Assembly: GCA_945882615.1 (NCBI GenBank)
Contig: CAMCWK010000002.1
Span: 62,001-126,000, forward strand
Source: Rhizobium sp. Q54
GTDB taxonomy: Bacteria; Pseudomonadota; Alphaproteobacteria; Micropepsales; Micropepsaceae
Direction: 5' to 3'
Length of the DNA stretch: 64,000 bases
Part shown: piece after piece, positions 15,008-19,622 of the stretch
Position numbering within the stretch: position 1 is the stretch's first letter
Layout of the letters: the number at the start of each line of letters is the position of its first letter
Position numbers and translations under genes: made by a program
The notes under the pieces: generated by a model
Databases searched by the model: none
Told to the model about the DNA's origin: nothing
What the model saw: only the letters and a program-made list of their open reading frames with translations

Positions 15008-18000
15008 TTAAACAGCTTCTACCGACATCACACCCGGCAGTGCCGCAATGCGGTTGCGCAAGGTGGCATTCACCGCGATGCGCTTCTTGAGTTCGATCTC
15101 GACTTCCTCGCCCGCATTGCCCGGTACCACGATGTTCACCAGCCCCTTGCCGGCTTGCGACAGTTCGGCGGACAGCATGTTCAGCGACGACGCATCGGCA
15201 AGACGGATCACCATGCCCTCGCCCGCCTGCGCCGCGGCCTGATCCAGGTCCAGGATGGATGCGGCGCGCAGTTTCAACTCGTCGCCATCCCATTCCGCGC
15301 TGGCGCTGATCAACAGCGACTTGCCCGATTCCAGCAGCGGGCGGCTCGCCGCCAGCACTTCGGGAAACAGCATGATCTCGAACATGCCGGTGGGATCGGA
15401 GAAGGAGACAAAGGCGTACATCTGGTCATTGCGGCCGCGCCGTTCGGACTTCTTGATCAGGGTGCCGGCGATCTTGGCCTTGAAGCCGGCGCGGCGGCGG
15501 TCTTCCGCCAGCGCGGCATAGGTGGAGGCGCCCAATCGCTTCAGCGCCGGGCCATAGGAATCCAGCGGGTGCCCCGACAGGTAAAAGCCCATCGCCGAGA
15601 ATTCCTCGCCAAGCCGCTCATGCACCGGCCAGTCGGGGATATTGGTCAGACGCAGATCTTCCGCCGGGCTGCTGTCCCCGCCAAACAGCGAGACCTGGCC
15701 GCTTTCGCGTTCGCGCTGCGCCGCCTGCGCCCCGCCCAGGATACGGTCGGAATTGTCCACCAGCTGGCGGCGGTTGGGATTGAGGCTGTCGAACGCCCCT
15801 GCCCGCACCAGATTTTCGAACGCCCGCTTGTTGACCAGCCGTGGGTCCACCCGCCGGGCGAAATCGGACAGCGATTTGAACTTGCCGCCTGCCAGACGTG
15901 TCTCCACGACATGATCCATCGCCTGGCGGCCCACGCCCTTCACCGCTGCCAGGGCATAGAACACCGTATTGGCCTCGGCATCGCAGGTGAACACCGCTTC
16001 GCTGACATTGATGTCGGGCGGCGCCACCTTGACGCCCAAGCGCTGGGCTTCCTGGCGGAAGATATTGAGACGGTCGGTGGTGCCGATATCCAGCGTCATG
16101 GAGGCAGCGAGGAATTCGACGGGATAGTTGGCCTTCAGATAGGCGGTCTGATAGGCGACCTGGGCGTAGGCGGCGGCGTGACCCTTGTTGAAGCCGTAAC
16201 CGGCGAATTTTTCCGCCTGCTCGAAAATGGTTTCGGCCACGTTGCGGGCGATGTTCCGCTCTGCCGCGCCTTTCATGAATTTTTCGCGCTGGGGGATCAT
16301 TTCCGCCGGGATCTTCTTGCCCATGGCGCGGCGCAGGATGTCGGCCTCGCCCATGGTGTAACCGGCCAGCTCGCGGGCGATGCGCATGACATCGTCCTGA
16401 TAGGTCATGACGCCATAGGTTTCCTTCAGGATCGGCTCCAGGGCGGGGTGCAGATACTCCACCAGCTCCTTGCCGTTCTTGCGGGCGATATAGGTCGGAA
16501 TGGCATCCATCGGACCGGGACGGTAGAGCGCGACCAGCGCCACCAGATCGTTGATGTGATTGGGCTTCATCTTGCGCAGCAGGTCGCGCATGCCCGCGCC
16601 TTCCATCTGGAAGACGCCGACGCTGTCGCCATGGGCGAGCATCTCGAAGGTGTTGATATCGTCGAAATCGATGGTCTGGGTGTGCAGCGCGATGCCGCGC
16701 TTTTTCAGCAGCTCTTCGGCCTTGGCGATCACCGTCAGGGTCTTGAGGCCCAGAAAGTCGAACTTCACCAGACCGGCTTTTTCCGCATCCTCATAGTCGA
16801 ACTGCGTCACCGGCATGTCGGAACGCGGATCGCGGTAGAGCGGCAGAATCTCGTCCAGCGGCCGGTCACCGATCACCACACCCGCCGGATGGGTGGAGGC
16901 ATGGCGGTACAGGCCTTCGATCTTCTCGGTGATCTCGAACAGGCGTTGGGCGATAGGTTCCTGCTCGGCGATCTGCTGCAGGCGCGGTTCGCTCTCTACC
17001 GCCTCTTTCAGCGAAATGGACTTGCCCGGCGGGTTGGGGATCAGCTTGGCGATGCGGTCCACCAGACCCAGCGGCATTTGCAAGACGCGGCCCGCATCGC
17101 GCACCGCGGCCCGCGCCTGCAAGCTTCCCAGCGCGATGATTTGCGCCACCCGGTCGGCGCCATACTTGTCGCGCACATAGCGCACCACCTCGTCGCGCCG
17201 CTCCTGGCAGAAGTCGATGTCGAAATCCGGCATCGACAGGCGTTCGGGATTAAGGAAACGCTCAAAGAACAGACCGAAACGCAACGGGTCGAGGTTGGTG
17301 ATGTCCAACGCCCAGGCCACCAGCGAAGAGGCGCCGGAGCCGCGCACGCCCACCGGAATGCCGCGCCCGCGCGTCCATTTCATGAAGTCGGACACGATCA
17401 GGAAGTAACCGGGAAAACCCATGCGGTTGATGATGCCGAGCTCATAGTCCAGCCGTTCGTCATAAACCTTGCGATCTTCGGCAAGCGGCGCATTGGTCAG
17501 ACGCCGTTCCAGTCCCGCGACAGCCTGCGCCTTCAGCTCGGCTTCCGCCGACAGGCCGGATTCCGGCGTGAATACGGGCAGGATCGGCTTGCGCTTGACC
17601 GGACGGAAGGCGCAGCGCCGTGCGATCTCGATGGTGTTTTCCAGCGCTTCGGGCAGATCGGCGAACTTGGCCTGCATCTCCGAAGGCGTCTTGAAGCGAT
17701 GCTCCCGCGTCAGGCGGCGGCGATCGTCCTGGGAGACGAAGGCGCCGTCGGCGATGCAAAGCAGCGCATCATGGGCTTCGTACATGTTGGCGCGGCCAAA
17801 ATGCACGTCATTGGTGGCGACGATGGGCAGCTTCAGGCCATAGGCCATGTCGAGCAGCCCGTCTTCCGTGGCCCGCTCTTCGGCCAAGTCATGGCGCTGC
17901 AGTTCGACATAGAGACGATCCGGGAAGGCGGCGGCGAGTTTTTCCAGCTGCGCCTGCGCGGCATCTTTCTGGCCCTCCAGAAGCAACTGGTTGATCACCC

Positions 18001-18424
18001 CGCCCGGTCCGCCGGTCAGGGCTATCAGGCCTTCGGTGTGGGCGAAAAGCTTTTCGGCTTTTACATGCGGCCAGTCGCCCGCTTCCACTTCCAGATAAGC
18101 GGCCGACAGCAACTTGGTCAGGTTCTGATAGCCGACGGTATTCTGCACCAGCAACGGCACATGCGGTGGCTTCTTGCGCGATCCCGTCTGCAACGGACCG
18201 CGGGGGGCGAACTCCACCGACAGCAGCGCGCCGATAATGGGCTGAATGCCACCCTTGGCCAGGGTGTCGGCGATCTCATAAACGCCAAACATGTTGTTGG
18301 TGTCGGTGACCGCCGCGGCGGGGGTTCCAGCTTCGCGCGCCAGATCGGCCAGTTCCTTGGGGTGCACCGCCCCTTCCAGAAGCGAATAGGCGCTTTTTAT
18401 GCGCAGATGAACAAAGGACGCCAT
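15008..18424 (-). CDS. dnaE: DNA polymerase III alpha subunit (replicative DnaE1)
   Basis: Catalytic subunit of the replicative polymerase. The 1138 aa protein opens MASFVHLRIKSAYSLLEGA, the PHP domain start. The C-family polymerase core follows, with the active-site aspartates in PDFDIDFCQERRDEV near residue 400 and VRGSGASSLVAW before it. The tandem helix-hairpin-helix and OB-fold (AGTLIKKSERRGRNDQMYAF) are at the C-terminus. Length and motifs fit DnaE1 rather than the shorter SOS-induced DnaE2. A 34-codon ORF with a LexA-type box lies 80 bp upstream in the same direction, so some dnaE transcription may come through it. Confidence 0.97.
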   Translation of the reverse strand: MASFVHLRIKSAYSLLEGAVHPKELADLAREAGTPAAAVTDTNNMFGVYEIADTLAKGGIQPIIGALLSVEFAPRGPLQTGSRKKPPHVPLLVQNTVGYQNLTKLLSAAYLEVEAGDWPHVKAEKLFAHTEGLIALTGGPGGVINQLLLEGQKDAAQAQLEKLAAAFPDRLYVELQRHDLAEERATEDGLLDMAYGLKLPIVATNDVHFGRANMYEAHDALLCIADGAFVSQDDRRRLTREHRFKTPSEMQAKFADLPEALENTIEIARRCAFRPVKRKPILPVFTPESGLSAEAELKAQAVAGLERRLTNAPLAEDRKVYDERLDYELGIINRMGFPGYFLIVSDFMKWTRGRGIPVGVRGSGASSLVAWALDITNLDPLRFGLFFERFLNPERLSMPDFDIDFCQERRDEVVRYVRDKYGADRVAQIIALGSLQARAAVRDAGRVLQMPLGLVDRIAKLIPNPPGKSISLKEAVESEPRLQQIAEQEPIAQRLFEITEKIEGLYRHASTHPAGVVIGDRPLDEILPLYRDPRSDMPVTQFDYEDAEKAGLVKFDFLGLKTLTVIAKAEELLKKRGIALHTQTIDFDDINTFEMLAHGDSVGVFQMEGAGMRDLLRKMKPNHINDLVALVALYRPGPMDAIPTYIARKNGKELVEYLHPALEPILKETYGVMTYQDDVMRIARELAGYTMGEADILRRAMGKKIPAEMIPQREKFMKGAAERNIARNVAETIFEQAEKFAGYGFNKGHAAAYAQVAYQTAYLKANYPVEFLAASMTLDIGTTDRLNIFRQEAQRLGVKVAPPDINVSEAVFTCDAEANTVFYALAAVKGVGRQAMDHVVETRLAGGKFKSLSDFARRVDPRLVNKRAFENLVRAGAFDSLNPNRRQLVDNSDRILGGAQAAQRERESGQVSLFGGDSSPAEDLRLTNIPDWPVHERLGEEFSAMGFYLSGHPLDSYGPALKRLGASTYAALAEDRRRAGFKAKIAGTLIKKSERRGRNDQMYAFVSFSDPTGMFEIMLFPEVLAASRPLLESGKSLLISASAEWDGDELKLRAASILDLDQAAAQAGEGMVIRLADASSLNMLSAELSQAGKGLVNIVVPGNAGEEVEIELKKRIAVNATLRNRIAALPGVMSVEAV

Positions 18425-18504
18425 GGAATGGTCTCAGCGAAGCCGCGCCAGTATCGCCCGCCGGCCAGCGATATGGGCGCCCGGCGGCGCCCTATCCACA
18501 GCGA

Positions 18505-18609
18505 TCAGGTGCTGGAACCCAGAAACACATGGGCGCCGCTGGCCAGCACAAAGGCCGACACCATGAACAGAATAAGCCCCGCGCCCGCCGCCGCATCCTT
18601 GATCCACAT
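18505..18609 (-). CDS. 34-residue single-span membrane peptide, SidA-like candidate
   Basis: A small ORF opening MWIKDAAAGAGLILFMV, with one hydrophobic segment covering most of the chain and a short C-terminal tail GSST. GGGAG lies 9 bases upstream of the ATG. A GTTC-N7-GTTC LexA-type box is centred about 37 bp upstream. Caulobacter SidA is a 29-residue, LexA-controlled inner-membrane inhibitor of cell division; from memory its gene is also next to dnaE. Size, topology, control and position agree, but sequence identity to SidA was not checked. The frame stays open to 18819, but that extension has no support. Confidence 0.55.
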   Translation of the reverse strand: MWIKDAAAGAGLILFMVSAFVLASGAHVFLGSST

Positions 18610-18638
18610 GATCGCCGTCTCCCTCTTGGTCGAGGTTT

Positions 18639-18653
18639 GTTCTAGTTTGGTTC
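18639..18653. promoter_or_regulatory. LexA-type SOS box (GTTC-N7-GTTC)
   Basis: An exact direct repeat GTTC-TAGTTTG-GTTC, the alphaproteobacterial LexA operator form. It lies 30 bases upstream of the 34-codon ORF and about 215 bases upstream of dnaE. On the minus strand a possible promoter TTGTGT-17-TAGAAC has its -10 inside this box, so LexA binding would block it. The operator form is known from Caulobacter and rhizobia; use here is inferred. Confidence 0.6.
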
Positions 18654-18822
18654 CATCCAGAACACAAGAACAAAAGGTGATCAAATTGCCCCGCACACGG
18701 GTGGCGTTGGACCAGTAAAGCGGATCACGCTGATAGCTCATGCAAAGACAAGTCTTTGCGCCGTCCCCGGTTTCGGTGTCCTTGGAATCACCCCAGGGGT
18801 TAACAAGCCCGCCGCGCAAGTG

Positions 18823-18889
18823 TTAACGCGGCAGCTCGGTGCCTTCGATCAGCTTGCCCTGATGCAGCAGCAGGGCCCGGGCCATGCGC
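18823..18889 (-). pseudogene. Remnant of a second lolD 3' end
   Basis: About 53 bp (18837-18889) repeats the end of the intact lolD gene (18944-18996), offset 107 bp, with about ten differences. Read on the minus strand it gives [17 protein letters not shown] then a TAA stop, against [17 protein letters not shown] in LolD. No upstream ABC sequence is attached. The bases between the two copies form a GC-rich hairpin (CGCGGC-GGA-GCCGCG). It is best explained as the leftover of a duplicated or replaced lolD gene. Confidence 0.7.
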
Positions 18890-18929
18890 CCCCCCGCGGC
18901 GGAGCCGCGCATAGAAAACGCGTCGCGCG

Positions 18930-19622
18930 CTACCGGGGAATTTGGGTGCCTTCGATCAGCTTGCCCTGGTGCAGCAACAACGCACGGTCCATGCGCGACG
19001 CCAGTTCGAAATTGTGGGTGGCGATCAGCGCCGCCAGACCTTCTTTGCGGGTGATGGCGATCAGGGCGTCGAACACCCCGCCGGACGTCCGCGGGTCCAG
19101 ATTGCCGGTGGGTTCGTCGGCCAGAAGGATGCGCGGGCGATTGGCCAGGGCGCGGGCGATGGCGACGCGCTGCTGCTCGCCGCCGGACAGCTTGGACGGC
19201 AGGTGCGTCAGGCGCTTGCCCAGCCCCACCACGTCCAACAACCGCGTGGCTTCCACCGCCGCATCCTTGCGCGACGTGCCCGCGATCATCTGCGGCAGCA
19301 CCACATTTTCCAGAGCGTCAAACTCTGGCAGCAGGTGGTGGGCCTGGTAGACGAAACCGATCTTGTCGCGGCGGATGCGGGTGCGTTCCTGATCCGGCAA
19401 TTTCGATGTGGCGACGCCGCCGACATAGATTTCACCACTGGTCGGCGCTTCCAGGAGCCCCGCGATATGCAGCAAGGAAGACTTGCCCGCGCCGGAGGGG
19501 CCCACCAGCGCCACGATCTCGCCCGGCTTCAGCGCCAGCGACAGGCCGCTGAACACTTCCAGCTGGCCCTCACCCTCCTTGTAACGGCGGGTGATGTTCT
19601 CAAGCCTGAGGATCTCATCCAT
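18930..19622 (-). CDS. lolD: Lipoprotein-releasing ABC transporter ATPase LolD
   Basis: Cytoplasmic ATPase that drives release of outer-membrane lipoproteins from the inner membrane to LolA. The 230 aa protein has Walker [12 protein letters not shown] near residue 41, a Q-loop in [12 protein letters not shown], the signature [15 protein letters not shown], Walker [13 protein letters not shown] and the switch His in ATHNFELA. The LolD-typical H-loop region and length are normal. It overlaps lolC by 8 bp. A partial second copy of its 3' end lies just downstream. Confidence 0.94.

What the first reader, a model, noticed from the sequence alone, without database searches (positions are those of the whole stretch)
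18505..18653. LexA-box micro-ORF next to dnaE: a candidate SidA-type SOS division inhibitor
A 34-codon single-span membrane peptide has an exact GTTC-N7-GTTC box 30 bases upstream and lies just before dnaE. Caulobacter SidA is a 29-residue LexA-controlled inner-membrane peptide that stops division at FtsW/FtsN. Such ORFs are usually missed by gene finders.
Basis: partly seen in the sequence, partly recalled or inferred. Interest (0 to 1): 0.72.

Follow-up and report, generated by a model that had tools for sequence, protein, structure and literature searches.

The report
SidA-like SOS membrane peptide before dnaE
Just before the gene for the main DNA polymerase lies a real, overlooked 34-amino-acid membrane peptide under DNA-damage (LexA) control; it is a distant relative of the Caulobacter division inhibitor SidA, and similar peptides sit at this spot in about a dozen alphaproteobacterial families, so a checkpoint known only from Caulobacter and its close kin is probably much older and wider.

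Summary
Minus-strand ORF 18505-18609 encodes MWIKDAAAGAGLILFMVSAFVLASGAHVFLGSST; an exact box (18639-18653) lies 29 bases upstream and dnaE starts 80 bases downstream. One box per window is expected by chance, so the case rests on conservation. The peptide is found in 34 of 37 same-genus genomes. All 30 loci examined lie upstream of dnaE and carry the box 41-76 bases upstream. Substitutions are coding-like (pN/pS 0.26, against 0.99 and 2.36 in the other frames). The genome's other boxes mark lexA, ssb, a uvrD/pcrA-type helicase and imuA. Named Caulobacter vibrioides carries its SidA (NCBIfam NF033228, E 2e-20) at the same place before dnaE. The window peptide escapes that model. But a profile built without its genus ranks it first of 1929 short ORFs in the window, and profile-profile comparison gives 93%. 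In 107 other alphaproteobacteria, 21 dnaE-upstream regions hold the box against 3 with the reversed control, and most of these hold a similar peptide. Best reading: a divergent member of a wider SidA family, LexA-repressed, blocking septation at FtsW/FtsI/FtsN. The gene, its control and its ancestry are well supported by sequence. Division inhibition and its target are inferred.

The parts
18505..18609 (-). micro-ORF, 34 aa single-span membrane peptide MWIKDAAAGAGLILFMVSAFVLASGAHVFLGSST (SidA-like)
   Evidence: Translation; homologues in 34/37 genus genomes; 30/30 upstream of dnaE with box; pN/pS 0.26; leave-genus-out HMM rank 1 of 1929
18639..18653 (-). LexA box, GAACCAAACTAGAAC read on the gene's strand (GTTCTAGTTTGGTTC on +)
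   Evidence: Exact match; conserved in all 30 genus loci; same type as the boxes at lexA (GAACTAAAGTAGAAC), ssb, uvrD/pcrA-type helicase and imuA in this genome
18617..18623 (-). Shine-Dalgarno-like GAGGGAG before the ATG at 18609 (position approximate)
   Evidence: Read directly; purine-rich block conserved
18635..18675 (-). probable promoter with the LexA box inside it: conserved TTTTGTTCTTG block (about 18665-18675; -35 TTGTGT here, TTGACA in relatives), -10 TAGAAC overlapping the box
   Evidence: TTTTGTTCTTG found in 24 of 30 genus loci; block alignment; hexamer assignment is inference
15008..18424 (-). dnaE, DNA polymerase III alpha subunit, downstream gene in the same direction
   Evidence: NCBIfam NF004226; Pfam
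18425..18504 (-). spacer between the micro-ORF and dnaE; has a CTGTGGATAG motif just after the stop, kept in relatives, and a G+C-rich hairpin without a T run
   Evidence: TGTGGA after the stop in 29/30 genus loci; hairpin read
18930..19622 (-). lolD, upstream neighbour (context)
   Evidence: TIGR02211 is the best of its NCBIfam hits, though below that model's cut-off

Best explanation
The micro-ORF is a real protein-coding gene repressed by LexA: the box lies inside its promoter. It is a divergent, unannotated member of the SidA family, inherited at the locus just upstream of dnaE. On DNA damage RecA-driven LexA cleavage releases the promoter. The 34-residue peptide inserts in the inner membrane, N-terminus (K4, D5) most likely inside, and binds the late divisome complex FtsW/FtsI/FtsN, holding it inactive, so septation stops while DNA is repaired. 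Shown here by sequence: the coding gene, conserved box, dnaE linkage and relation to SidA. Inferred: LexA binding, induction, topology, target and division arrest.
For: Coding: pN/pS 0.26 in frame versus 0.99 and 2.36 out of frame, differences by codon position 174/86/400. Conservation with box and dnaE: 30/30; 34/37 genomes, the three misses being 58, 67 and 74% complete. SOS box validity in this genome: boxes at lexA, ssb, uvrD/pcrA-type helicase and imuA. SidA is at the same locus: the C. vibrioides DSM 9893 peptide hits NF033228 at 2e-20, and 73 of 80 named Caulobacteraceae-type loci have dnaE within 900 bases. Homology: leave-genus-out HMM E 0.0022, next best ORF 0.74; hhalign 93%; most tested genus peptides beat about 99% of segment-preserving shuffles. 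Class-wide: 21/107 box versus 3/107 control, and most of the top micro-ORFs for both HMMs carry a box. SidA function from PMC4211646.
Against: No expression or phenotype data. NF033228 does not match the window peptide, and the direct A1-A2 profile comparison is weak (probability 9.7%); the link needs intermediates, and short hydrophobic helices can resemble each other by chance (one of 2000 segment-preserving shuffles scored as well). Of three FtsW positions where mutations suppress SidA in Caulobacter (A31, F145, A246), this genome's FtsW has C, L and A, so contacts differ if the target is the same.
Confidence: 0.75

Rival explanations
1. The box is there to put dnaE under SOS control; the micro-ORF is only a leader peptide that tunes dnaE translation or transcription.
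For: dnaE follows by 80 bases with no clear T-run terminator; the box-dnaE linkage holds across families.
Against: Selection acts on the amino-acid sequence and keeps a membrane helix with a charged start, which a leader does not need. Spacing to dnaE varies, and in one subclade dnaE lies 536-1050 bases away behind a DUF3788-type ORF. In Caulobacter the same-position peptide is an inhibitor in its own right. Joint control of dnaE as a second effect is not excluded.
Confidence: 0.1
2. An SOS-induced membrane toxin peptide of the TisB/DinQ kind that depolarises the membrane and gives dormancy, not a divisome inhibitor.
For: Same size, topology and LexA control as those peptides (general knowledge for TisB); DinQ is an SOS-regulated single-span peptide (PMC3567139).
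Against: Sequence and locus tie it to SidA. It is a conserved chromosomal gene at a fixed housekeeping locus, in 34/37 genomes, unlike mobile toxin modules. An antisense regulator was not looked for.
Confidence: 0.1
3. Chance box and spurious ORF.
For: The exact box is expected 1.42 times per window.
Against: Box, ORF and dnaE kept together in 30/30 relatives with coding-type substitution.
Confidence: 0.02

Closest known systems
SidA of Caulobacter crescentus (CCNA_02004; NCBIfam NF033228)
   Same: LexA box in the promoter, about 30-residue single-span membrane peptide with a charged start before the helix ([KR][DE]xxA), position just upstream of dnaE
   Different: Not matched by the curated SidA model; starts MW(I/L/A)KDAAAG; lacks the FVWM(V/M)C core; 34 instead of 29 residues
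DidA of Caulobacter
   Same: Damage-induced small membrane division inhibitor acting on the FtsW/I/N complex (PMC4211646)
   Different: 71 residues, SOS-independent (DriD), another locus
YneA (Bacillus subtilis), SosA (Staphylococcus aureus)
   Same: SOS-induced division inhibitors; YneA is small and acts through FtsW (PMC13396833, PMC6851548 titles and abstracts)
   Different: No sequence relation shown, other phylum, not known to be linked to dnaE
TisB / DinQ (E. coli)
   Same: SOS-controlled single-span peptides
   Different: Membrane toxins with antisense RNA control (general knowledge; DinQ in PMC3567139); no sequence or locus relation shown

Membership tests
SidA family | Match to NCBIfam NF033228 above cut-off | tested here: not met
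   0 families at E<=1 for the window peptide; the C. vibrioides peptide scores 72.4 bits. In the class search 0/190 genomes exceed the cut-off; among the 14 controls only C. vibrioides does. So it is outside the curated subfamily; the claim is of a wider, homologous family.
SidA family | Sequence homology, possibly remote | tested here: met
   Leave-genus-out HMM rank 1 of 1929, E 0.0022; hhalign A1 versus A3 93%; direct A1-A2 weak, 9.7%
SidA family | LexA-type box GTTC-N7-GTTC in the promoter | tested here: met
   18639-18653, 30/30 relatives
SidA family | Locus immediately upstream of dnaE | tested here: met
   Window and 30/30 relatives; named Caulobacteraceae-type loci 73/80
SidA family | About 30-residue single-span inner-membrane peptide | tested here: met
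   34 aa, hydropathy maximum 2.25; membrane location itself not measured
SidA family | Induced by DNA damage through RecA/LexA | not testable with these tools
   Needs RNA-seq or a reporter
SidA family | Binds FtsW/FtsN and blocks division | not testable with these tools
   FtsW suppressor positions in this genome: A31->C, F145->L, A246=A, uninformative by themselves
TisB/DinQ-type SOS toxins | Antisense RNA partner and toxic depolarising peptide | not tested
   No search for an antisense RNA was made; toxicity cannot be tested here

The most novel reading that the evidence does not exclude
SidA is not a Caulobacter speciality but one branch of an old alphaproteobacterial family of dnaE-linked, LexA-controlled membrane micropeptides (about nine family-level groups with clear sequence resemblance, about four more with a box and a single-span ORF only), mostly unannotated, coupling SOS division arrest and possibly replicative-polymerase supply in one operon.
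Probability: 0.7. Interest if true: 0.6.

Novelty: new member of a known kind. Interest (0 to 1): 0.5.

Why it matters
The division brake of the alphaproteobacterial SOS response has, as far as I know, been worked out in Caulobacter only, and the curated SidA model did not exceed its cut-off in any of the 190 genomes of the class searched here. A synteny rule (box, micro-ORF, dnaE) finds relatives that sequence models miss, gives a list of unannotated genes to test, and provides natural SidA-FtsW variants for mapping the contact. It also raises the question whether dnaE is induced together with the brake.

Tried and rejected
The genus-peptide profile (A1) searched against 385 class genomes gave, outside the genus, mostly chance hits; only the f121 genus stood out; the dnaE-anchored approach was needed. 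Direct profile comparison of A1 with Caulobacter-type peptides alone was too weak. NF033228 as a class-wide probe found nothing over its cut-off. Searches for a paper placing sidA next to dnaE found none held (the original SidA paper is not held); the adjacency was shown instead from named genomes. The whole genome was not available as a file. The organism could not be named. FtsW residue comparison was inconclusive. No structure prediction was run: a 34-residue helix would not separate the hypotheses.

Full report
What is in the sequence. On the minus strand, 18609 down to 18505 encodes MWIKDAAAGAGLILFMVSAFVLASGAHVFLGSST. A Shine-Dalgarno-like GAGGGAG precedes the ATG, the box GAACCAAACTAGAAC (GTTC-N7-GTTC on the + strand) lies at 18639-18653, 29 bases upstream, and dnaE begins at 18424, 80 bases past the stop. 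dnaE is confirmed by NCBIfam and Pfam. The upstream neighbour is lolD-like.

Chance. One exact box in 64 kb is what shuffled sequence gives (1.42 expected), and the genome has 58 against 50 for the reversed pattern. The box alone is therefore no evidence. The genome does use this box type, however: exact copies lie before lexA, ssb, a uvrD/pcrA-type helicase and imuA, and the copy at lexA (GAACTAAAGTAGAAC) is also found, letter for letter, at the micro-ORF of two relatives.

Conservation. A 34-residue query found the peptide in 34 of 37 same-genus genomes, window genome included; the three without a match are only 58, 67 and 74% complete. In all 30 loci that were read, the ORF lies upstream of dnaE in the same direction and has a GAAC-N7-GAAC box 41-76 bases before its conserved part. 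Invariant residues are W2, D5 and G9. Substitutions follow the code: pN/pS 0.26 in frame against 0.99 and 2.36 in the shifted frames for the ten closest sequences; third positions change most. The box and a TTTTGTTCTTG block a little further upstream (24 of 30 loci) stand out in the alignment; in relatives the block runs into TTGACA, a good -35, so the box sits within the promoter (inference).

Relation to SidA. SidA of Caulobacter is a 29-residue LexA-controlled inner-membrane peptide that interacts with FtsW and FtsN (PMC4211646); it is CCNA_02004 (PMC10769358), and dnaE is CC1926 with lexA at CC1902 (PMC1839093). A scan of named genomes found it in many Caulobacter and Phenylobacterium records; 73 of 80 loci have dnaE within 900 bases and 53 an exact box within 150 bases upstream. 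The copy of C. vibrioides DSM 9893 matches NCBI's SidA model at 2e-20. So SidA itself sits where the window's peptide sits.

Is it the same family? The curated model does not match the window peptide, and a direct profile comparison with Caulobacter-type peptides is weak. Intermediates close the gap. Among dnaE-upstream regions of 107 other alphaproteobacteria, 21 have an exact box against 3 for the reversed control. Many hold a single-span micro-ORF shortly after the box: MSEWVKDTAALFVLGAVMWSGFALTAAAQAAG, MDWVKDAAGLAALVGLWGAFAAWAEIIGSVVGS, MTNFLKDFLALSSVVGVLWAVTVWSAIVGSALT...VSRWFQDIAALASVAAMGWTVLLWSEIAKAAVAG. They share [K/R/Q][D/E]xxA at the start of the helix. A profile built from these and SidA-type peptides without the window's genus ranks the window peptide first of 1929 short ORFs (E 0.0022, next 0.74) and above all but one of 2000 segment-preserving shuffles; profile-profile comparison gives 93% over 32 columns. 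Caution: these are short hydrophobic peptides, and a few genus members score no better than several percent of their shuffles.

How it most likely works. Damage activates RecA, LexA is cleaved, the promoter opens, the peptide inserts in the inner membrane and holds the FtsW/FtsI/FtsN complex inactive until repair is done. The gene, box, synteny and ancestry are shown by sequence; LexA binding, induction, topology and target are inferred from SidA. FtsW of this genome has C, L and A at the positions of the Caulobacter suppressors A31, F145 and A246, so the contact may differ. Joint control of dnaE is possible, because no T-run terminator separates the genes, but a conserved CTGTGGAT motif and hairpin in the spacer leave room for a separate dnaE promoter.

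Verdict. A real, LexA-linked gene that no NCBIfam or Pfam model matches, best filed as a divergent branch of a wider SidA family. It is a new member of a known kind; the wider spread of the family is the interesting part.

Noticed in passing
18425-18504 and the same spacer in L031-L060: CTGTGGAT(A/G), resembling part of a DnaA box, lies 7-25 bases after the micro-ORF stop in most of the 30 genus loci (TGTGGA in 29); in our window it is followed by a perfect GGGCGCC/GGCGCCC hairpin. It may belong to a separate dnaE promoter.
   Followed up: partly
L048, L053, L057, L060: One subclade has a DUF3788-type ORF (Pfam PF12663, E 2.4e-15 for the L053 copy; apparently two copies in L048) between the SidA-like peptide and dnaE, in the same direction.
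   Followed up: partly
18838-18890 versus 18945-18997: The 3' end of lolD is duplicated 107 bases away (50 of 61 bases identical over 18830-18890), leaving a partial copy of its C-terminus downstream of the gene.
   Followed up: partly
G000 contig 2, 52990 and 80424: lexA lies about 27 kb from dnaE in this genome; in Caulobacter the two are also near each other (CC1902, CC1926), so lexA-dnaE proximity may be old.
   Followed up: no
L321 (G000 contig 29, 26737-26773): Four GTTC half-sites in phase every 11 bases form three overlapping exact boxes with no long ORF close by; meaning unknown.
   Followed up: partly
L212, L217, L222, L227, L233: Some Caulobacteraceae carry two boxes 18 bases apart before the SidA-like gene.
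   Followed up: no
18665-18675: The TTTTGTTCTTG block upstream of the box is kept in 24 of 30 genus loci; part may be the -35, the rest unexplained.
   Followed up: partly
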